From assembly GCF_003054445.1 (NCBI RefSeq), contig NC_042509.1, positions 868,001 to 932,000 on the forward strand: 64,000 nt of DNA, read 5' to 3'. Below the pieces are notes generated by a model. It was not told where the DNA came from and did no database searches. It was given only the letters and a program-made list of their open reading frames with translations. This stretch comes from Pichia kudriavzevii. Its lineage: Eukaryota; Ascomycota; Pichiomycetes; Pichiales; Pichiaceae. Position numbers and translations under genes: made by a program. Positions 19,558-43,313 of the stretch are shown here, piece after piece (within the stretch, counting starts at the first letter, position 1; every line of letters begins with the position of its first letter).

Positions 19558-19743
19558 TCGTCTTTCTCTAAGCTTCATTTTATTATATACCTTTATATAG
19601 ATACATATATATATATATATGTATGTATATTTGCTTTAATTTTGGGAGGAATAAGTTAAACTCACGTATGTCTTGGTTTTAAATTTTGTGTAGACTATAC
19701 AAATGTCTGAGAAAAAAGACTCCAATAATATACATAATAAACT

Positions 19744-20556: not shown

Positions 20557-21651
20557 ATGTCTGAGTTTACAATTACCATTAAAATGACGGGGGACAAGAA
20601 ACACGAAGTTACAGTTTCCCCGGAAATGACCGTTCTGCAACTCAAGGAAAAGATTGCTTCTGATTTGGACATTTCCGTAGACCGTCAACGCCTCATCTTC
20701 TCAGGTAAGGTGTTAAAAGATAATGACACTCTTGATGTCTACAAAATTAAGCAAGGACATTCGATCCATTTAGTCAAAGGTGCCGCAAAGTCAACCTCAC
20801 AACCACCTCAGCCTCTCTCAACAGAAACTAACACCACCAATACAACGGGGAATAATCCTTCAACTTCGGCTGTTCCGTCAAATATTGAATCAGGTCAAGG
20901 CGCGTTCAATCCGTTGGCCGGCTTAACAGATGCGAGATATGCAGGTTACAATATTCCAATGCCAACTATGGATCAACTTGGTTTTGGTGCTGATGGCATG
21001 CAATTACCTCCTGAAAACCAATTGGAACAAATGATGGACAATCCTTTGTTTCAAGAAAGTATGAGATCGATGCTTTCAAATCCTCAAATGTTGGACTATA
21101 TGATACAACAGTCACCTCAATTGAGAGCTATGGGTCCAGCTGCCAGGGAATTATTGCAATCGGATTATGTCAAAAACATGCTGACAAACCCTCAGGCAAT
21201 GAGGAGTATGATGGAGATGCAGAGAGCCATGGGTGGCATAGGTGCCACTGGGGCAAACACAAACTTCCCATCACCCGGAAATCCATCTGACTCTAACACT
21301 GCAAACACGGATTCGCCACGTAATTCAACTTCAAACTCTTCAGGTTCCTCTGTACCAAGCAATCCATTTGCGTCACTATTTGGAGCAGGTGTTCCTGGAG
21401 CAGGTTTAGGAGGTAATCCCTTTTTGGCAAATCCTAATTTAATGAATCTCTTTGGTGGTGCCAGTACTGGTACTGGTTCAACTGCACCTTCTGCTTCCGA
21501 TACAAGGCCTCCAGAAGAAGTCTATGCAACACAATTACGTCAATTAAACGATATGGGCTTCTTTGACTTCGACCGTAACATTGCCGCATTGAAACGTAGC
21601 GGTGGATCTGTGGAAGGTGCTATTGAAATGTTGCTAAACGGCTCTGTTTAA
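20557..21651 (+). CDS. DSK2: Ubiquilin Dsk2 (UBL-UBA proteasome shuttle)
   Basis: A 364-residue ubiquilin. An N-terminal ubiquitin-like domain occupies residues 1-75 (FTITIKMTGDKKHEVTVSP to IHLVKG). Met-rich STI1-type repeats follow near 145-230 (MMDNPLFQESMRSMLSNPQM), then a Gly/Asn/Ser-rich linker, and a C-terminal UBA domain at about 322-364 (QLRQLNDMGFFDFDRNIAAL). The UBL domain binds the proteasome and the UBA domain binds polyubiquitin, so Dsk2 carries substrates to degradation. S. cerevisiae Dsk2 is 373 residues, so the protein is full length. A CTG codon at a conserved hydrophobic UBL position suggests that CTG is read as Leu in this yeast. It is convergent with dehydrogenase copy A. 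Confidence 0.95.
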   Translation: MSEFTITIKMTGDKKHEVTVSPEMTVLQLKEKIASDLDISVDRQRLIFSGKVLKDNDTLDVYKIKQGHSIHLVKGAAKSTSQPPQPLSTETNTTNTTGNNPSTSAVPSNIESGQGAFNPLAGLTDARYAGYNIPMPTMDQLGFGADGMQLPPENQLEQMMDNPLFQESMRSMLSNPQMLDYMIQQSPQLRAMGPAARELLQSDYVKNMLTNPQAMRSMMEMQRAMGGIGATGANTNFPSPGNPSDSNTANTDSPRNSTSNSSGSSVPSNPFASLFGAGVPGAGLGGNPFLANPNLMNLFGGASTGTGSTAPSASDTRPPEEVYATQLRQLNDMGFFDFDRNIAALKRSGGSVEGAIEMLLNGSV

Positions 21652-21758
21652 TATGACTGACTAGCATTTTGTTTTAAGTATAAATGTACAAACATTCAGC
21701 GTAGTATATAAACAAGTCTGGGCATTCTAATTCGTATGCAATAGAAAACAACACCAAA

Positions 21759-22838
21759 CTATTTAAAATATTTATCATAACCAGTCAAGACAAACCTGAA
21801 TCTAACATCACCCTTAACCATCCTCTCCCATGCAGTCTTGACATTCTCCTCAGAAATGTCAATTGTCTCAATCATTGGCTTGATGTTGTTTTTGGATGCA
21901 ACTTCCAACATGTACTCAATATCGCTAGGAGAACCAGTAACCGAACCACCAATCGAGATGTTGTTGAATAAAAAGAACATTGGATCAATGGTGAGCTTCT
22001 CACTAACAGGTGGTGCAGTGATGAATGTCATGTGTCCGTAGGCTCTCAACAAGGACAACACGTCCTGAATCGCTCCTTCCGAGAACGACGAACCCGTGTT
22101 GACAATCAACTCCAACGTGTCCATGTGCTCCTCCATTGCCTTCTTGTCCGATGTCGCAACATAGTGGTCTGCTCCCAAGCTCGATGCCAACTCCTTCTTT
22201 GCATATGTCCTGGATATTGCTGTGACCTCGGCACCTAAAGCCTTGGCAAATAGGATCGTCATGTGTCCAATACCTCCGATACCGTTCACACCAACCTTCG
22301 TGCCCTTCTTCACTCCAGCCGTCATCAACGGTCTGAAGCCTGTAATACCACCACACAACAATGGTGCAACGTCTTCCGACTTCATGTTCTCTGGAATCTT
22401 GAACGCAAACTCAGAGTTGACTCTGACATGCGAAGCATATCCACCTTGTGTAGGTTGGCCAGATGGATACACGCCAAGGTAGGTGCCTACCTGCTTCTTG
22501 CATGTATTTTGATGGCCTTCGGTACATCTTGTACACGTGTGGCATGAATCACATTCTGCACCAACACCAACTCTGTCACCAATCTTAAATCTAGCGTCCG
22601 GGCCCGCATTCACTACAGTACCAACGATTTCATGTCCAACTGCAAGCGGAGTGTATGGCTGGCCCCAGTCTCCGTTGGCAGCATGGATATCTGATCCACA
22701 GATACCACATGCCTCCACCTTGATTTCCACATCATAAGGTCTTAGCTCTTGTGGCTTGTAGGTGAATTCCTTTGGATTGGTCCAGTCATTGAAATCAAGG
22801 ACACCAATAGCTCTAATTTCTTTTAACTCTTGTGGCAT
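21759..22838 (-). CDS. NADP-dependent cinnamyl-alcohol-type dehydrogenase, copy A
   Basis: A 359-residue zinc alcohol dehydrogenase of the Adh6/Adh7 (CAD) group, which reduces aromatic and branched aldehydes in the cytosol with NADPH. Catalytic zinc ligands are Cys47 in CGICGSD, with His69 and Glu70 in VGHE. Structural-zinc cysteines lie in CDSCHTCTRC and the Cys of HQNTC. The nucleotide loop GIGGIG follows, near residue 187. The protein is identical to copy B at 24525-25604, and as far as I can compare by eye the DNA is identical from the first base of the ATG to inside the stop codon. The stop codon differs (TAG here, TAA in copy B) and both flanks diverge at once. CGG half sites lie upstream. 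Confidence 0.92.
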   Translation of the reverse strand: MPQELKEIRAIGVLDFNDWTNPKEFTYKPQELRPYDVEIKVEACGICGSDIHAANGDWGQPYTPLAVGHEIVGTVVNAGPDARFKIGDRVGVGAECDSCHTCTRCTEGHQNTCKKQVGTYLGVYPSGQPTQGGYASHVRVNSEFAFKIPENMKSEDVAPLLCGGITGFRPLMTAGVKKGTKVGVNGIGGIGHMTILFAKALGAEVTAISRTYAKKELASSLGADHYVATSDKKAMEEHMDTLELIVNTGSSFSEGAIQDVLSLLRAYGHMTFITAPPVSEKLTIDPMFFLFNNISIGGSVTGSPSDIEYMLEVASKNNIKPMIETIDISEENVKTAWERMVKGDVRFRFVLTGYDKYFK

Positions 22839-24524
22839 TTTAATACCAAATTCTGTTGTTGCTTACTATATCGTATATTATTCGGAATTTCAGGGGTATC
22901 CATGGGGCAGCTCAGCTACTTTAAATACTCAACAGTTCTCATGACCTTCCCCATCTTTGTCATTCGGATATCGGATTTTGACTATCGGTGATACCATCTA
23001 TTTCCCAGATGAAACTAACAATCGCCTTGTTGCCGTACCAAAATGTCACTTCCTTACAAATGTCATATTGAAAATCGGTTTTCGGGATTTAGTGCTCGGT
23101 CTGAAGTTTCAAAATCCGGGTACCGTGCGCCTCCCTTATCTGTGTGAGACCAATATGACATTCTGTTTATGTAAACACGTTTTATGAGAAGGCATCGGGC
23201 ATGTAATTGCAATATCTCACATCTACCAGACAAGCTGCTTAAAAGTAATTTCTATACTTCAAGAAGATTCATTTAGTATTTGGTAAAGTGTATAGAAATG
23301 TATGTATAATAAACTTCAGGCAAGTACAAAGAGAGTGTCCATTTGAAAAACTAGAATCTAAATTACAGAGAAACCAATTCAGACATGGACATACATGAAT
23401 CTAATTATAATATGGATGCAGATGTATCTATAAGGGCCACATTCGAGGGTCTCTCTCAATATGGCGAGATTACAATGAGAGTTATGATGAGTTCTTCATC
23501 AAGAGTAAGTTGGTGAAACACAAGAAGGTGCTCTCAATACAACTCCTGAAAGGTTATTATGAATTTACCAAGTGGGACGACCCGTACGGCCTGCCATCGA
23601 ACAAAATCTACAAAAGCCTTCTCAGAGACCTCTTACAATCCTCACGGTATTCAGAGTTCACGGGATATGGAACTCTTGAATCTGAGAATTCTATCGTTAA
23701 TCCTGATCGATCACTAACATGGACTTATTTAGCTCGCAGATATCAGGCCTTCTCGTCGAAAGTAAACAGAAATTTGTAGTCGGTGTTGTACCAATTCACT
23801 CTCAACAATGGATTCATTATAGCTCTTTTTTTGATGTTAACGTCTTATTCTGGTGGACTCCTTAGACATGCCGATAATATATTTTACGAATTTCATGCCA
23901 AAACTAGATCCGTCGGCCTCTATTGTGCAACTAGGCTCTGCATTACCCAGTCTAACAACCTAAATAGGCACGTTGTTTGTTTTGCTTAAAAACGCATCAT
24001 ATTTATATGTCTTTCTATATACGTGTGAGATCACCAATTGAATCCTTTTTAAAGAAGGGATGTAGTAAGAATCCAATTTATCGAACAAGACTCAAGCATT
24101 TTTTTACCTTTTCGATGCCTTTTCATAATTGGTTGATTACATAATCACAGTGATATCTCATTTACACATAAAATATTCATGAAGGTTTGAAAGAGTATAG
24201 CAAGTATATTTTCATTATTCACAACAAATATAACACTGCTTCCACAAAGAACAGACTACTACAAAATATCCCTGAAAGACATGTAACTAGCGAGTTAAAA
24301 TAGTGTGTTTGTATAAAAGCAGGAATATTTTGCAAGGTTACTATAATATCCCCGCCTACAGAAAAATCTACACTAATAGGAGGAGCACTCAACTTAGTGA
24401 CTGTATACATATTAGGGATCTGTGGCGGTAAAAAGATTTGCATTTACCAATATTTAACGAAAGCGCAATGCGTGCTTGTCTAACAAATGATGTAAATATA
24501 TATGAATATATGTGTTTATAACTT
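22839..24524. other. Gene-poor spacer between the two dehydrogenase copies
   Basis: This 1.7-kb spacer holds the copy A promoter and has no convincing gene. The first 300 bases carry several CGG half sites. Between about 23360 and 23840 lie overlapping open stretches in different frames. One, ending at 23779, reads YEFTKWDDPYGLPSNK without a well-placed ATG. Another, from an ATG at 23719, reads MDLFSSQISGLLVESKQKF and stops after 48 codons. These could be remnants of an old host gene, but I cannot name a family. The remainder is AT-rich. Confidence 0.45.
22964..23125. promoter_or_regulatory. Cluster of CGG half sites upstream of dehydrogenase copy A
   Basis: CGG or CCG triplets occur at 22965, 22972, 22986, 23076, 23083, 23097, 23116 and 23123, with a proximal one at 22883 (TTCGGAATT). 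The 9-mer TTCGGATAT at 22964-22972 is also found in the promoter of the Zn2Cys6 gene downstream (29253-29261). Zn2Cys6 proteins typically bind paired CGG triplets, so this is a candidate operator region. Confidence 0.45.
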
Positions 24525-25604
24525 TTATTTAAAATATTTATCATAACCAGTCAAGACAAACCTGAATCTAACATCACCCTTAACCATCCTCTCCCATGCA
24601 GTCTTGACATTCTCCTCAGAAATGTCAATTGTCTCAATCATTGGCTTGATGTTGTTTTTGGATGCAACTTCCAACATGTACTCAATATCGCTAGGAGAAC
24701 CAGTAACCGAACCACCAATCGAGATGTTGTTGAATAAAAAGAACATTGGATCAATGGTGAGCTTCTCACTAACAGGTGGTGCAGTGATGAATGTCATGTG
24801 TCCGTAGGCTCTCAACAAGGACAACACGTCCTGAATCGCTCCTTCCGAGAACGACGAACCCGTGTTGACAATCAACTCCAACGTGTCCATGTGCTCCTCC
24901 ATTGCCTTCTTGTCCGATGTCGCAACATAGTGGTCTGCTCCCAAGCTCGATGCCAACTCCTTCTTTGCATATGTCCTGGATATTGCTGTGACCTCGGCAC
25001 CTAAAGCCTTGGCAAATAGGATCGTCATGTGTCCAATACCTCCGATACCGTTCACACCAACCTTCGTGCCCTTCTTCACTCCAGCCGTCATCAACGGTCT
25101 GAAGCCTGTAATACCACCACACAACAATGGTGCAACGTCTTCCGACTTCATGTTCTCTGGAATCTTGAACGCAAACTCAGAGTTGACTCTGACATGCGAA
25201 GCATATCCACCTTGTGTAGGTTGGCCAGATGGATACACGCCAAGGTAGGTGCCTACCTGCTTCTTGCATGTATTTTGATGGCCTTCGGTACATCTTGTAC
25301 ACGTGTGGCATGAATCACATTCTGCACCAACACCAACTCTGTCACCAATCTTAAATCTAGCGTCCGGGCCCGCATTCACTACAGTACCAACGATTTCATG
25401 TCCAACTGCAAGCGGAGTGTATGGCTGGCCCCAGTCTCCGTTGGCAGCATGGATATCTGATCCACAGATACCACATGCCTCCACCTTGATTTCCACATCA
25501 TAAGGTCTTAGCTCTTGTGGCTTGTAGGTGAATTCCTTTGGATTGGTCCAGTCATTGAAATCAAGGACACCAATAGCTCTAATTTCTTTTAACTCTTGTG
25601 GCAT
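24525..25604 (-). CDS. NADP-dependent cinnamyl-alcohol-type dehydrogenase, copy B
   Basis: The second copy of the 359-residue Adh6/Adh7-type enzyme, in the same orientation and 2766 bases downstream of copy A, with an identical predicted protein. All catalytic and structural zinc ligands and the GIGGIG cofactor loop are intact. The stop codon is TAA rather than TAG, and neither the 3' flank nor the promoter resembles copy A. Its own promoter contains a perfect 9-base inverted repeat with CGG cores (25821-25850) and a Yap1-like TTAGTAA (25859-25865), so the copies may respond to different signals. It lies directly downstream of the Zn2Cys6 gene on the same strand. Confidence 0.92.
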   Translation of the reverse strand: MPQELKEIRAIGVLDFNDWTNPKEFTYKPQELRPYDVEIKVEACGICGSDIHAANGDWGQPYTPLAVGHEIVGTVVNAGPDARFKIGDRVGVGAECDSCHTCTRCTEGHQNTCKKQVGTYLGVYPSGQPTQGGYASHVRVNSEFAFKIPENMKSEDVAPLLCGGITGFRPLMTAGVKKGTKVGVNGIGGIGHMTILFAKALGAEVTAISRTYAKKELASSLGADHYVATSDKKAMEEHMDTLELIVNTGSSFSEGAIQDVLSLLRAYGHMTFITAPPVSEKLTIDPMFFLFNNISIGGSVTGSPSDIEYMLEVASKNNIKPMIETIDISEENVKTAWERMVKGDVRFRFVLTGYDKYFK

Positions 25605-25921
25605 TTCTTCTTGGATGTTACTGCCTCTGTAAATAAAGTAAAAGAAAGTATCATGTGAGAATTCATGGGGGATAGTGGTCGTCTTCTTATAACACCATCC
25701 ATATTATTGAACGATCTACTTTGGTAAACGCTGGAACTTTAATTTCTGTGGAAAAAAAAAATACATCTTAAACCCGGTGATATCCGTGAAAGAAAGAAGC
25801 TTTAGAAAAACCCTCATTTTTTCGGAAACACTTGATGAGACGTTTCCGAATGTAATAATTAGTAAGCACCACTCAATTTTTAAACCAGTGACGTAGGGAT
25901 TCAGTCTAAATTTAGAAATTT
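25605..25921. promoter_or_regulatory. Promoter region of dehydrogenase copy B with paired CGG site
   Basis: TTCGGAAAC (25821-25829) and GTTTCCGAA (25842-25850) form a perfect 9-base inverted repeat with a 12-base spacer, 217-246 bases before the ATG. The arms hold CGG and CCG, the usual contact triplets of a Zn2Cys6 dimer. TTAGTAAG (25859-25866) resembles a Yap1 oxidative-stress site, which would suit an aldehyde reductase. Confidence 0.6.
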
Positions 25922-28900
25922 CTATGGCATTTTCATTCTAGAAAAATCAATGTCAAAACTCGTTATACCGGAGGTAAACCTTTCATCGTTGATGAACAAG
26001 TGAATCATTGATACAAGTTGATCTGGAGGGAGAAGGTCTTGCGAATTATCTGTCTTTAATGAATGCAATTGAATCGCGCGATTATTACCACCTAAATCAA
26101 TCTTACCGTTCCAAGTTTGGTGTTGTAGTTGGATATTTCCAGGTTGTAGTCTCTGCGGGTCTGTTTGTTCCATAAGAGTTGCAATATTTGGATTCAGACC
26201 ATAGGGAACTTCCTCTACCTCTTCATCATTAAGAATTACACTGAGTAATGCGTCCCTTTTACATGACTTGCTATGTTGCAATTCATATAGTCGCTGTGTG
26301 ACAATACGAGAAAGAACACTATACAATCCGAGTTCTTTAACATCATGATGTTTTTTTAATTCACTGAACATGGTGAGAACATATACTGCCAATCCAATAA
26401 TCTTTGATTTGATGTAAAACTCAAAATTATCAGATAATATAGGATTGCTTCGAGCCGCTTCGTAGATGCGGATAATAAATTGGGTATTCTTCGGGAAGTC
26501 TAAATACCCAATCCCAATCTCTTTGTTATATTTTTTGATCAACTGCTCATCTCTGAGAATGACATCAAGTTCATTTAAGGGAATATCATTGATATCAATT
26601 TGGTTTGGCCTTTCATCGTTTGAGGCATCTCCATATAATGTTAGAACGCAATCCAAAGTACAAAGTGTAGGGAAACCAAAACACGGTATCAACTCACCTC
26701 TTAAGCATAACAAAATTTCTTTTGTAGCATTGTTATCATTGCTTAAAAACTCAATCAGCCTGTAAGTCAGACAAATTAGAAGCAGAATTCTCATACCGCA
26801 AAGTTTTCGAATTTCAACAATTTCGATATAATGTGGTGAATCAAAACCCATTTCAGGGAAATTTCTCTTTATATTTTCCTTTTTGAAACAACAAAATAGA
26901 AGTAAATTTAGGAAAAAGATTAGTTTGATATATTTGATCTTAATATCAAGGTTGAATCGATCTTCAACTGTGTAATAAAGTTTCCCGTTGGTACTCTGCC
27001 CGTTACTATGGTTATCATCGCAGTTGTTATCATGATACCTTAGAGTCTCGCGTGTTTTGAAACATTCCAAAGTATCATAGGATTCCATCACACGATCCAT
27101 GAAGGTCGAGATAGATCCATAGTTGGTACCTGATTTTGAATTGAGTAAATGAGCCAAGTCTCTAACTAAACTTACATAATTCATTGATTTCATTTCAAGA
27201 GGATCAGTTGGATCAACTAGGTGAAACTTCTCACAAAACTCATCATTTATGAGTAGTGGAGTTCCTAGTCTAACAGAATACTCTCCATCGAGCTGAAGAT
27301 AGAAATTCCATAGAAACCACAAGTCCTTCTTTTTAATTGAGAAATTTCTATATTTTTCAACTACATTTTCAGAGTCATTTGGATCATGATTCAGATGGTA
27401 CCCTAGCTGAAATAACATACCAATATGTTCCCTAAGAAGAGGGTATATGTATTCTCGATTCAACCCTGTATATGCATTCTTATTATAAATGAGACTTGTG
27501 TATGAAATCATAAGAAATGTGATAAGACCAACATAATTAGTGCGTTGTTTATAGTTGGTCATATTAATTAAGGAAATGCAAACATCCGTCAAATTTTCAA
27601 ATGTATTATCCAATTGAAACTCATATTTAGATGTGTTGTTGAGCTTATCGAAAGTTTCAGATATATTAATGATCGCAAAAATGAGGGCTATTTCAAAATA
27701 ACACTCTTTGTACTTCTCACTATACTTTAGATGACCATATATCAAATCGAAGTTGATGATTGACTCTAACAACTGAACGGGAATCAACTTTCCAAAAATA
27801 AAAAAGTTCAAGTTGGTTTTGAAATACTCAACTCTTTCTTGTATGGCTTTGAGATTGTGGATCATAAACGGCTTGATCTTAGTGATGATACCATCAATTT
27901 TAGATCGATCAGTCAAATTCAAATCAATAAGAACTTTCCTACATTTCACTTTTTCCCAACGCTTAAAATATAGTTCCAATAAAGGATCAAATAACTCAGT
28001 GGCAAGATAGACAAAGTCCCTAGAGTTCCATAAAGTGGATGCATAATTGAGAGTAGTAACTCGATTTCTGATTATTCCTGTATCCTTAGATAACTTCCAT
28101 ACATTTGCATCAAGAATGACATTGGCATTTTCGCTTAGTCGAGAAACCGGCACAGTACTTTTTGTTTGTAATGTTAGCTTTAGTTGCTCTAACAGTTGTA
28201 GCATTAGGATTCTATTCGTCTTGGTTGGGTTTACCGCTAATTGATTGATTTTTTCAGATAATCTCTTGATCCTATCATCTTCCAATCCCGACTTTGCTGC
28301 ACTTGTATTGTTCCCGGGATGTTGAATCAAATCCTTATCCATAACTGGCAAACCATCATGTTCTTTCCCTAGCAATTCTGTTTGATTCAATGACTGTCTT
28401 GAATGGTTTGGATGACACGATGGTATACTGATAACTTGATTTTCGAGAATCTCTGGTTCTGCTTGATAGCTTGATTGGTAGTTTATAGGGAACCCACTCT
28501 GATAATCGGATTGATATTTTGCTTGGAACGGTACAGAATGCTGATTGGTTATATAGGTGGTGGGATAACCAATGGGATAATTGGCTGGAATATTAGCTGG
28601 ATAATTCGGTTGAGTGTTGTTTAGAACGCTGGATTGACAAGTTATTTTAGAACTTGGCTGAAAATTTGATTTGTAATCATATGAGATTTGCGAGCTCTGA
28701 TAAGATGTTTGTTCATTATGTTTGTAATTAAGAGGAAACCCTTCCGAGTACTTTGGCAAATGCGATTGTGGTGAAGCCGTCAGTTTATTTGACAGTGAGA
28801 TACTCCTCAAAGGGCTAAAGGGATCAGGAAGACCAGAACTCTTTAAAGCCTGTGAACTGTCAAGTTGCAACGGAAGGTATTCTTCGTTTGTAGGGTATAG

Positions 28901-40106: not shown

Positions 40107-40524
40107 CGCCGTTGCCAATAGTCCATGCGTACTCGTATACAAAAGGATTCCATTAAGTAATCAATTATTTAAGCGAGTGGGAAATTCGGTGGTATGCGCC
40201 GTCCCCGGGCTTTCTCTCTAATAGAGTAGCTCGGTCCCCTGGATAGCTTATTGCTGTCTTCCTCTTGAGAGGTTCCTGGGCGTGCAAGCGCCGGGCAGTT
40301 CCACAAGAAATTTCTGGGGGGCGATGCGGAGAGAAAAAGAAGGGTTTCCCACGAATCCCGTCTCTCGTCTCCCCCGTCGCCCTCCACTGGGAGTGTTCTG
40401 CGGACGGTTGGCCCTTTAAATTGGTACTTGCTTGTACAACTTTGGAGGGCTGTTGAGTGCAATGCGTGGATCCTTGTCATCTTGACATGGAAACTCGATA
40501 CCGATCACTATGGTGACGGTGGGC

Positions 40525-40626: not shown

Positions 40627-42762
40627 TTAAGCAAGATTTTGAGATTTGACACCATTGAGATCCGAAGACACCGTTTGAATCTCTCCGGTTGTATCACCCT
40701 CTGCCGGCTTATGATAGCTTAAGTTCTTGTAGAGACCACCACGGCCACGGAGCCCTCTCACCACCCCTCTGCCTCTAAACGCTCCTCTTCCTCTTCCTCG
40801 GCCTCTGTTCTTGCCATTACCTCTGCCTCTTGTCGAGATGGATTCATAGGAGACATCCGGACCTTCACATTCTATGGGATCAGTGAAAACGACGCCGGAC
40901 GAACGATGATTCTCCTGTTTGGCGGAGGTGGAGCTTTGTTTGCCAGAAGAGGAGTTTACCTCTTGTACAACACTTTCCACTTCTTCGCCAATACCAACAT
41001 CCTTGTCGCTCTTACTATGGGCAGCATCTTCAATATTCTGATCAATTCCACTACTGGCTTCTCTGACTTCTACTGACACATCCGTGGTCTCACCATGTTT
41101 GCTTCCAGGTCTTTTGTCGTTTCTGGATGCTTCATTACCCTTATTTTCATTTTCACCTTTATCGTGCCTTTTCTGTACCCTGTGCTTCGGACGACGTGTG
41201 GATTTCGTTCCATTGAAGAGGTGGAGCTTCTTCAACTCTTCCTCGTATTCTTCCTTACTTAATTCACGCGCAACACGTCTCTCTATATTGGCCTTCTCGG
41301 TAGCGTCTGTCTTGCCATTAACATCTTGCTTGACAGTATCCTTGTCTTTCTCCTGAACTTTATTACTTTCCTGGTTATTTTCCTTGTGGCCTTCATTGTT
41401 GTCCTCCTTATCACTTTCCCTACCGCTTTCCTTATTACCATCCTTACTATTTTCCTTGTAGTCATTCTTACTGTTTTCCTTTTTAGCTTCCTTTTTAGCT
41501 TCCTTTTTAGCTTCTTTTTTAGTTTCCTTTTTATTTTCCTTTTTACGTTCCTTACGATTTTCCTGGCTTTTTTCCCTATTATGATGAATTAGAGAAATAT
41601 CAAAAGTAGTATCATTGATAGCTGCCTTTTTCAATGTTTTTTCAATTTCCAATTGTTTCTTTAGTGTGTCCACTGGCTTGGCATTACCAAAAGGATTGAT
41701 TTTCCGTTCCCTCTGCGCTTTCTTTTGTTCTGCTGGACCTTCTTCCTTTTGCTTAGTGTGCTCCCCCGGTATGCCATTCGAGCTATTCGGAACATCGATG
41801 GCAGTACTAGAAGGGGGCTTACCAGACGCATCTGGTTTAGAGCTCTGAATCTTCTTCTTCTGTAAAATTTGTGCAACTTCACGAGTGTTCTCAGAGACAA
41901 TAGGGATTTCAGGAACAGTTACCGGTTTTGCATTTCCAAAGGGATTTTCCTTTGCTTTTTTTTTCTGTAGTATTTGAGCAACTTCACGAGTATTTTCCGA
42001 AACCACTGGAATCTCAGGAACAGTAACTGGCTTAGCAGCGCCAAATGGATTAGCCTTTGGCATTGTGCGTATTGGGGGTCTTTCATGGTGATCTACATCA
42101 GGAGTTTTATTATTATGACGTTCTCTTCGTTCACGTTCTGCGTTTTCAATGCGTTCATCTTCCTCATCTTCATCATAGTTGATAGATCTATTATACTCCA
42201 TGATACTATTGAATTCTGTAATTGGAATTGGTTCCACAAAAATCTTGTTTCTTTCAATGTTAAACCCATTCCATTTACAAACTTTTTGCAAATCTTGATT
42301 ATTATGGAGGAAGACAAAAGCCAATTTACGTTTCTTGGATTCGTCTGATGGGTCAATTAGAACATGACATTTTATGAATCTCGTGTATCTGGACTCAAAT
42401 AATTCCTTCAACAATTGACGTGTGCAGTAGCTGGGGACATTGTCAAATACAACAATATATTGACTACCACTCAGAGATGACGTATTGAATCGACTATTTC
42501 GGTCAAACCTATCGAACCTATAATTTGACGAATTCGACAACGAGAGGTTATTCATTGAATTGGGAGAGCTCAATGTACTTGTAATATCAAAGTCATCTTC
42601 GATCCAAGATGGAGTGCCCAAACTGGCATCAGCCATGAACTCAGTTAATGACATTTTCTTGGTACCTGTAAAGATGAGCAATTAACATTGTGATTTGAAG
42701 TTAGTATGTGTTACAAAATATGGCTAATTGACTAGCAACTTGTAAATCAATAACATACCCAT
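40627..42762 (-). CDS. TIF3: Translation initiation factor eIF4B (Tif3), one intron after ATGG
   Basis: Spliced from exon 1 (42762-42759) and exon 2 (42665-40627) into 680 residues beginning MGTKKMSLTEFMAD, which lines up with the Tif3 start (basic KK-M then a DLTSF-like segment and a Trp-acidic motif, here PSWIEDDFD). An RRM follows at about residues 70-150 (IVVFDNVPSYCTRQLL, KLAFVFLHN). Three copies of the NPFG(A/N)AKPV motif come next, then a long charged KKE/KEN-rich region and a Gly-Arg-rich tail (RGRGRGRGAFRGRG). eIF4B stimulates the eIF4A helicase and 40S recruitment. S. cerevisiae Tif3 has 436 residues; the repeat region is much longer here. Without the intron the frame could start only at a TTG. 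Confidence 0.85.
42666..42758 (-). other. 93-nt spliceosomal intron in TIF3
   Basis: On the minus strand the donor is GTATGT (42758-42753), the branch site TACTAAC (42706-42700) and the acceptor TTTACAG ending at 42666. All three are consensus yeast signals, and splicing joins ATGG to GTACCAAG in frame. The upstream exon contributes only the initiator codon plus one base. Confidence 0.9.

Positions 42763-43272: not shown

Positions 43273-43313
<41 letters not shown>

What the first reader, a model, noticed from the sequence alone, without database searches (positions are those of the whole stretch)
21759..25604. Two dehydrogenase copies identical across the CDS but diverging at the start and stop codons
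By eye the 1080-base coding regions are identical, down to the same shadow frames on the other strand. The flanks share nothing: identity ends inside the stop codon (TAG versus TAA) and within two or three bases of the ATG. A recent segmental duplication would carry flanks. The pattern suggests repeated gene conversion limited by diverged flanks, conversion from an mRNA-like template, or, less excitingly, an assembly artefact or engineered insertion.
Basis: partly seen in the sequence, partly recalled or inferred. Interest (0 to 1): 0.8.

Follow-up and report, generated by a model that had tools for sequence, protein, structure and literature searches.

The report
Twin yeast dehydrogenase genes, recently homogenised
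A yeast carries two neighbouring copies of one alcohol/aldehyde dehydrogenase gene that are letter-for-letter identical inside the coding region but unrelated outside it, most likely because one copy was recently used to overwrite the other during DNA repair, a known process called gene conversion.

Summary
Two head-to-tail 1080-base genes (21759-22838, 24525-25604, minus strand) are identical at 1079 of 1080 bases; only the last stop-codon base differs. Identity runs 2 bases beyond the ATG, and the flanks match no better than shuffles. The genome is probably Pichia kudriavzevii (Candida krusei) CBS573. Its third close paralogue has saturated silent sites (41 of 121 fourfold sites alike), and codon bias is at background level, so selection on codons cannot explain 158 identical fourfold codons. 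The flanks occur once in the genome, and the spacer ORF has named P. kudriavzevii relatives, so an engineered cassette is not supported; a mild polishing effect is not excluded. Best reading: tandem paralogues with diverged flanks, overwritten across the whole coding region by recent ectopic gene conversion. One event suffices; 'repeated' is not shown. An EF-1-alpha pair in this genome is a looser parallel: 98.5% alike in the CDS, silent differences only, downstream flanks unrelated, but some upstream similarity. Recurrent conversion is published for another tandem pair of this species. A clean new case of a known process, somewhat unusual because the gene is not codon-optimised.

The parts
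21759..22838 (-). Copy A of the ADH6-type dehydrogenase gene (359 aa, stop TAG)
   Evidence: closest solved structure by sequence 1piw
24525..25604 (-). Copy B, identical to copy A except the last base of the stop codon (TAA)
22839..24524 (.). 1686-base spacer between the copies, including the 5' flank of copy A and the 3' flank of copy B; 22843-24524 was searched and found once in the genome
23411..23779 (+). 122-aa open frame in the spacer; its piece 23459-23776 matches hypothetical proteins of P. kudriavzevii (BOH78_4956, JL09_g5252); coding status doubtful
25605..25921 (-). 317-base 5' flank (promoter region) of copy B, unrelated to that of copy A; 25608-25960 is found once in the genome
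21652..21758 (-). 107-base 3' flank of copy A, up to the convergent neighbour; found once in the genome
25922..29206 (-). Upstream neighbour: ORF (start codon as listed, TTG) with a Zn2Cys6 transcription-factor domain
20557..21651 (+). Downstream neighbour: ubiquitin-like/UBA protein (Dsk2/ubiquilin type; the name Dsk2 is recalled), convergent with copy A

Best explanation
The two genes are tandem paralogues of an ADH6-type, probably NADPH-dependent, alcohol/aldehyde dehydrogenase, old enough that their flanks have lost detectable similarity. The coding regions stayed alike through selection on the protein and perhaps earlier exchange (inferred). Recently a break or gap in one copy was repaired from the other. 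Strand exchange stopped where homology stopped, at the ATG and inside the stop codon, so the whole CDS was overwritten while each copy kept its own promoter and terminator. Shown: identity, its edges, flanks without detectable similarity and found once in the genome, no codon-bias explanation. Inferred: the repair event, its recency, and that the duplication is older than the last conversion. Not shown: that it recurred.
For: 1079 of 1080 bases identical, with flanks at shuffle level. All 158 fourfold codons are identical in the pair, while the third paralogue on contig C2 agrees at 41 of 121 comparable fourfold sites (268 of 360 aligned codons give the same residue, stop included), so silent sites do drift in this family. 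Codon adaptation of the pair is 0.376, inside the 0.281-0.427 range of 12 other window ORFs, against 0.83-0.85 for the EF-1-alpha pair, one member of which was in the reference set. Zero differences in 1079 bases bounds divergence at 0.28% (95%), with P = 0.013 at 0.4%, 0.4% being the published distance between two type strains (PMC6053246, abstract and passages). The EF-1-alpha pair on contigs C2 and C3 has 21 differences in 1377 bases, all silent third positions, with downstream flanks at shuffle level in 8 of 8 tests. Recurrent conversion of the tandem ABC11/ABC1 pair is published for this species (PMC6053246, passage). Edges at start and stop are not expected of random breakpoints (about 5e-5).
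Against: No second strain's or sister species' DNA could be compared, so concerted evolution was not tested. No flank similarity survives to prove that the copies arose as an ordinary tandem duplication. The identity is absolute to the last homologous bases, whereas tracts that need intact homology at both ends should leave eroded edges (toy simulation; roughly calibrated). The EF-1-alpha parallel is imperfect: its upstream flanks are more alike than 100 of 100 shuffles in 8 of 8 tests, and BLAST carries that match about 84 bases beyond the CDS length; the leader is pyrimidine-rich, which single-base shuffles do not model. A protein with one change (S253L, P0002), from a source labelled lgn (which I take to be Logan short-read assemblies), lies on a 3.5-kb contig, longer than I would expect for an identical 1.08-kb repeat, so some sample may have one copy or two differing copies.
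Confidence: 0.76

Rival explanations
1. cDNA-templated conversion: a reverse transcript of one copy recombined into its diverged paralogue, homology limiting the tract to the CDS.
For: Would also give CDS-limited identity. RNA-based conversion mechanisms in yeast are mentioned, with citations, in PMC4700949 (passage).
Against: No poly-A, shared UTR or lost intron; codon adaptation is at background level, giving no sign of high expression; ordinary DNA-templated conversion between neighbours needs no extra step.
Confidence: 0.07
2. Assembly or polishing effect: two copies that truly differ at a few sites were made identical in the consensus.
For: The published CBS573 assembly used HGAP3, then Illumina correction with Pilon and manual comparison with SPAdes contigs (PMC6053246 passage). 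The contig of P0002 is 3.5 kb.
Against: PacBio coverage was 115x (applies if this is that assembly) and both copies sit in distinct flanks found once in the genome. In the same genome the EF-1-alpha pair keeps its 21 differences, so near-identical pairs were not generally flattened.
Confidence: 0.09
3. Recent copy of the CDS alone into a new place (template switch, retrocopy or engineered cassette).
For: No flank similarity is detectable.
Against: Both edges at start and stop need about a 5e-5 coincidence for random breakpoints; a retrocopy should carry UTRs and poly-A; an engineered cassette would normally bring a promoter, terminator or marker found elsewhere, but the flanks are found once in the genome (no vector library was searched); the spacer ORF has named P. 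kudriavzevii relatives.
Confidence: 0.04
4. Selection on codon use or on an overlapping signal keeps the two CDSs identical without exchange.
For: Highly expressed duplicates can be constrained at silent sites (general knowledge).
Against: Codon adaptation is at background level (0.376) and the third paralogue's fourfold sites are saturated (41 of 121).
Confidence: 0.02

Closest known systems
EF-1-alpha gene pair of the same genome (L045/L046; found with Pfam PF00009, the name EF-1-alpha recalled from the sequence)
   Same: CDS nearly identical (1356 of 1377), all 21 differences silent third positions, downstream flanks at shuffle level
   Different: On different chromosomes, codon-optimised (0.83-0.85), 1.5% divergence rather than zero, and upstream flanks keep some similarity
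ABC11/ABC1 tandem pair of P. kudriavzevii (PMC6053246 passage; the original paper, Lamping et al. 2017, is not held)
   Same: Same species and chromosome, tandem, homogenised by recurrent gene conversion
   Different: 98% identity; copy-number variation among strains is documented there and untested here; whether its tracts end at the CDS was not checked
Homogenised histone duplicates of yeasts (PMC4700949, start of abstract and passages) and the Saccharomyces flip/flop inverted repeats (PMC9731477, abstract and passages)
   Same: Interlocus gene conversion keeps paralogues alike within a species
   Different: Histones are core genes and the converted copies are described as not identical in DNA; the flip/flop repeats include intergenic sequence and are inverted
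Saccharomyces cerevisiae Adh6 (1piw; the name Adh6 for that entry is recalled)
   Same: Best match among solved structures, nearly full length, zinc-type medium-chain dehydrogenase
   Different: Cofactor and substrate of this protein untested

Membership tests
Interlocus (ectopic) gene conversion pair | Paralogues more alike, silent sites included, than their age allows | tested here: met
   0 differences at 158 fourfold codons with flanks no better than shuffles; the third paralogue is saturated. That the pair is old rests on the flanks alone
Interlocus (ectopic) gene conversion pair | Paralogues within a species closer than orthologues between species at synonymous sites | not testable with these tools
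   No DNA of relatives could be fetched; apart from P0002, the 120 listed proteins reach at most 77% identity
Interlocus (ectopic) gene conversion pair | Identity block ends at the limit of shared homology | tested here: met
   Edges at ATG minus 2 bases and inside the stop codon; weak as a test, since homology outside is judged from the same sequences
Interlocus (ectopic) gene conversion pair | Recurrence (concerted evolution) | not testable with these tools
   Needs strain and sister-species DNA
Recent tandem segmental duplication | Flanking DNA duplicated along with the gene | tested here: not met
   16 of 16 flank alignments at shuffle level
Retrocopy | Poly-A tract, UTR carried along, intron loss | tested here: not met
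   No poly-A or shared UTR at the edge; intron loss uninformative, as both copies are uninterrupted open frames
ADH6-type / cinnamyl-alcohol-dehydrogenase-like medium-chain dehydrogenase | ADH_N and ADH_zinc_N domains, near full-length match to yeast Adh6 | tested here: met
   (query residues 9-358 of 359 aligned to 1piw)
ADH6-type / cinnamyl-alcohol-dehydrogenase-like medium-chain dehydrogenase | NADPH-dependent aldehyde reduction | not testable with these tools
   The NCBIfam model for NADPH-dependent aldehyde reductase Ahr is the top hit but below its cut-off (277.9 of 470 bits)

The most novel reading that the evidence does not exclude
A reverse transcript of one copy overwrote the other, so that RNA-templated repair homogenised exactly the coding region while the promoters evolved apart; in effect the enzyme is kept single while its regulation is split in two.
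Probability: 0.06. Interest if true: 0.65.

Novelty: new member of a known kind. Interest (0 to 1): 0.3.

Why it matters
It is a clean natural example of conversion stopping at the edge of coding homology in a gene that is not codon-optimised, whereas the familiar homogenised yeast pairs (histones, ribosomal proteins; PMC9731477 passage) are thought to be duplicated for high expression. It lets one ask whether such homogenisation needs selection at all, and it warns that short-read assemblies, copy-number calls and expression estimates may merge the two genes. If it recurs between strains, two promoters driving one shared enzyme sequence would be a handy system for measuring conversion rates.

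Tried and rejected
Segmental duplication was rejected because no flank similarity is detectable. Engineered cassette: not supported. Codon constraint was rejected. Prokaryotic and viral collections were tried for contaminating yeast contigs: genome contigs gave 1 relative in 63 candidate stretches, a bacterial locus at 32% identity; viral contigs gave none in 10 candidates; both tools say that records of the window's own or a very near genome may be left out. But the database is clustered at 90%, so homogenised pairs would have been merged and could not appear there. A protein tree of 40 rows (the window protein, the C2 paralogue and 38 of the 120 listed hits) groups the pair with the C2 paralogue (99/99 support) in a 22-row set that also holds the named P. 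californica, P. inconspicua and P. membranifaciens proteins; it cannot date the tandem pair. The toy simulation of conversion tracts was imperfectly calibrated (mean divergence up to about three times the target) and is used only for direction. In one search the rows for L001/L002 and L001/L003 picked neighbouring open frames and are discarded, and read L003 on the wrong strand; replace them (the count of 158 fourfold codons concerns copy A and stands). On checking, I had described the EF-1-alpha flanks as wholly unrelated from a global alignment; a local test shows upstream similarity, so that parallel was weakened and confidence in the main reading lowered from 0.78 to 0.76. Literature: nine searches showed no paper about this pair in the rows listed; five of them held more papers than were listed (25 of 101, 10 of 31, 15 of 59, 15 of 875; some searches listed all). 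'Alcohol dehydrogenase' occurs nowhere in the main text of PMC6053246 or PMC11881565. PMC8694134 (passages) measured a P. kudriavzevii gene called ADH6 by RT-qPCR; which locus that is could not be told.
Full report
Observation. The window holds two open frames of 359 codons on the minus strand, 21759-22838 (copy A) and 24525-25604 (copy B), 2766 bases apart. Self-BLAST gives a single ungapped 1081-base match at 100%. Base-by-base comparison finds one difference in 1080, the last base of the stop codon (TAG versus TAA), and two shared bases (AA) before the ATG. Local alignments of 150-1000 bases of flank are no better than shuffles in 16 of 16 tests.

Where it is. The window is C4:868001-932000 of a 10,791,929-base genome in 5 contigs. 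Contig lengths for C3, C4 and C5 (2,541,747, 1,383,544 and 1,289,138) match the published CBS573 chromosomes 3, 4 and 5 (2.542, 1.384 and 1.289 Mb; PMC6053246 passage); C1 and C2 (2,842,500 and 2,735,000) are slightly shorter than published (2.852 and 2.746 Mb). The spacer frame matches two proteins named P. kudriavzevii. I infer that the source is P. kudriavzevii (= Candida krusei), probably CBS573; the genome itself is unnamed.

What the gene is. The protein has ADH_N and ADH_zinc_N domains, and its best solved relative is 1piw (E 8e-93), which I recall as S. cerevisiae Adh6, followed by R-specific carbonyl reductases. An NADPH-dependent aldehyde reductase is therefore likely, but cofactor and substrate are inferred. 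Copy A faces a ubiquitin-like/UBA gene, and copy B follows a Zn2Cys6 transcription-factor ORF.

Third paralogue. The genome has one more close relative, at C2:73232-74299: 747 of 1080 bases, 268 of 360 aligned codons with the same residue (stop included), and 41 of 121 fourfold sites. So silent sites in this family are free to saturate, and this dispersed member has not been homogenised. Among the 12 places found with the protein in this genome, two are the identical pair, one is this paralogue (75%), and the other nine are at 28-41%.

Flanks. The spacer (22843-24524), the 5' flank of copy B (25608-25960) and the 3' flank of copy A (21652-21758) each match only themselves in the genome (that search skips simple repeats).

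Codon bias is no explanation. With a reference set of one EF-1-alpha, two HSP70s and one aldehyde dehydrogenase, the pair scores 0.376; 12 other window ORFs score 0.281-0.427; the two EF-1-alpha genes score 0.85 and 0.83, the first being part of the reference set.

Comparison pairs in the same genome. In 9 valid comparison pairs that I chose from the families searched (EF-1-alpha, HSP70, sugar transporters, ADH, two ADH rows discarded) none is identical. The highest is EF-1-alpha with 21 differences in 1377 bases, all silent third positions. By global alignment its flanks look random (143 matches in 280 columns upstream, 130 in 284 downstream, against a random-pair mean of about 138 per 300). 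By local alignment the downstream flanks are at shuffle level (8 of 8 tests) but the upstream flanks beat 100 of 100 shuffles in 8 of 8 tests, and BLAST carries the match about 84 bases beyond the CDS length. The leader is pyrimidine-rich, so part of this may be composition. The EF-1-alpha pair is therefore a parallel for coding homogenisation, with a sharp edge at its 3' end only. Some sugar-transporter pairs share flanks (221 of 290 upstream for L025/L028), and a tandem transporter pair (L030/L031) is 84% identical with flanks that look unrelated by global alignment: tandem position alone does not guarantee homogenisation. This is not a genome-wide survey, and histone and old-yellow-enzyme loci could not be cut out.

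Timing. Zero differences in 1079 bases bounds divergence since the last exchange at 0.28% (95%); at the 0.4% by which two type strains differ (PMC6053246), zero differences has P = 0.013. The last exchange is thus probably younger than the split of those two strains, if the assembly is right and mutation is ordinary.

Mechanism. A segmental duplication carries flanks; none are detectable here. A random CDS-sized insertion would need both edges to fall at start and stop by chance (about 5e-5). Conversion between paralogues whose only remaining homology is the CDS predicts these edges. A cDNA template with homologous integration predicts them too, and the two cannot be told apart here; DNA templating is preferred because the copies are neighbours and nothing points to RNA. 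PMC4700949 (passage) mentions RNA-based conversion in yeast as real, and says that for ribosomal proteins expression level alone did not explain conversion frequency. Whether exchange was once or often is open. In a toy simulation whole-CDS events gave zero differences in 6% and 20% of runs (two target divergences), and the five kinds of partial tract in 0-3%; calibration was rough and partly favours whole-CDS events.

Against the reading. No strain or sister-species DNA was available. A protein one residue off (P0002, S253L; the listing rounds its identity to 100%) comes from a 3.5-kb contig, which suggests that in some sample the copies differ or one is absent; the C2 paralogue's cluster (P0003) reaches a 23.4-kb contig. 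Polishing could have erased a few differences, although the EF-1-alpha pair kept its own.

Literature. Recurrent conversion of the tandem ABC11/ABC1 genes in this species (98% identity) is stated in PMC6053246 (passage), citing a paper that is not held. Tandem paralogues in yeasts are on average less divergent than dispersed ones, with conversion offered as one cause (PMC2822764, abstract and passages). Nine searches showed no paper about this dehydrogenase pair in the rows listed, several lists being capped. One paper reports induction of a P. kudriavzevii gene called ADH6 (PMC8694134, passages); which locus was measured is not stated in what I saw.

Verdict. A real, well-bounded and probably recent case of coding-limited gene conversion: a new member of a known kind, of modest interest.

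Noticed in passing
window 40108-40520 (+): Nuclear RNase P RNA gene (Rfam RF00009, 69.2 bits).
   Followed up: no
window 43276-43309, 19595-19630 and about 676-711: Similar palindrome-like stretches of about 35 bases; the one at 43276 is a perfect inverted repeat and matches the other two at 85-91%. Possibly a dispersed terminator-like or mobile element.
   Followed up: no
window 41852-41954 and 41957-42059: Adjacent 103-base direct repeats at 77% identity inside the ORF 40627-42681.
   Followed up: no
L045 / L046 (genome C3:2415995, C2:42414): EF-1-alpha pair on two chromosomes: 1356 of 1377 CDS bases identical, silent differences only, downstream flanks unrelated, upstream flanks partly alike.
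   Followed up: partly
genome C3:254837-255885: Old-yellow-enzyme-type gene found as four separate pieces, one with two in-frame stops, apparently a relic.
   Followed up: no
window 23411-23779 (+): Spacer open frame with relatives of 152 and 126 aa named P. kudriavzevii, the 2 hits among 3 candidates scored (only proteins of similar length are candidates); species-restricted or not a real gene.
   Followed up: partly
genome C5:388766-389617: Partial aldehyde dehydrogenase match with one in-frame TAA, possibly a decaying copy or an unrelated weak match.
   Followed up: no
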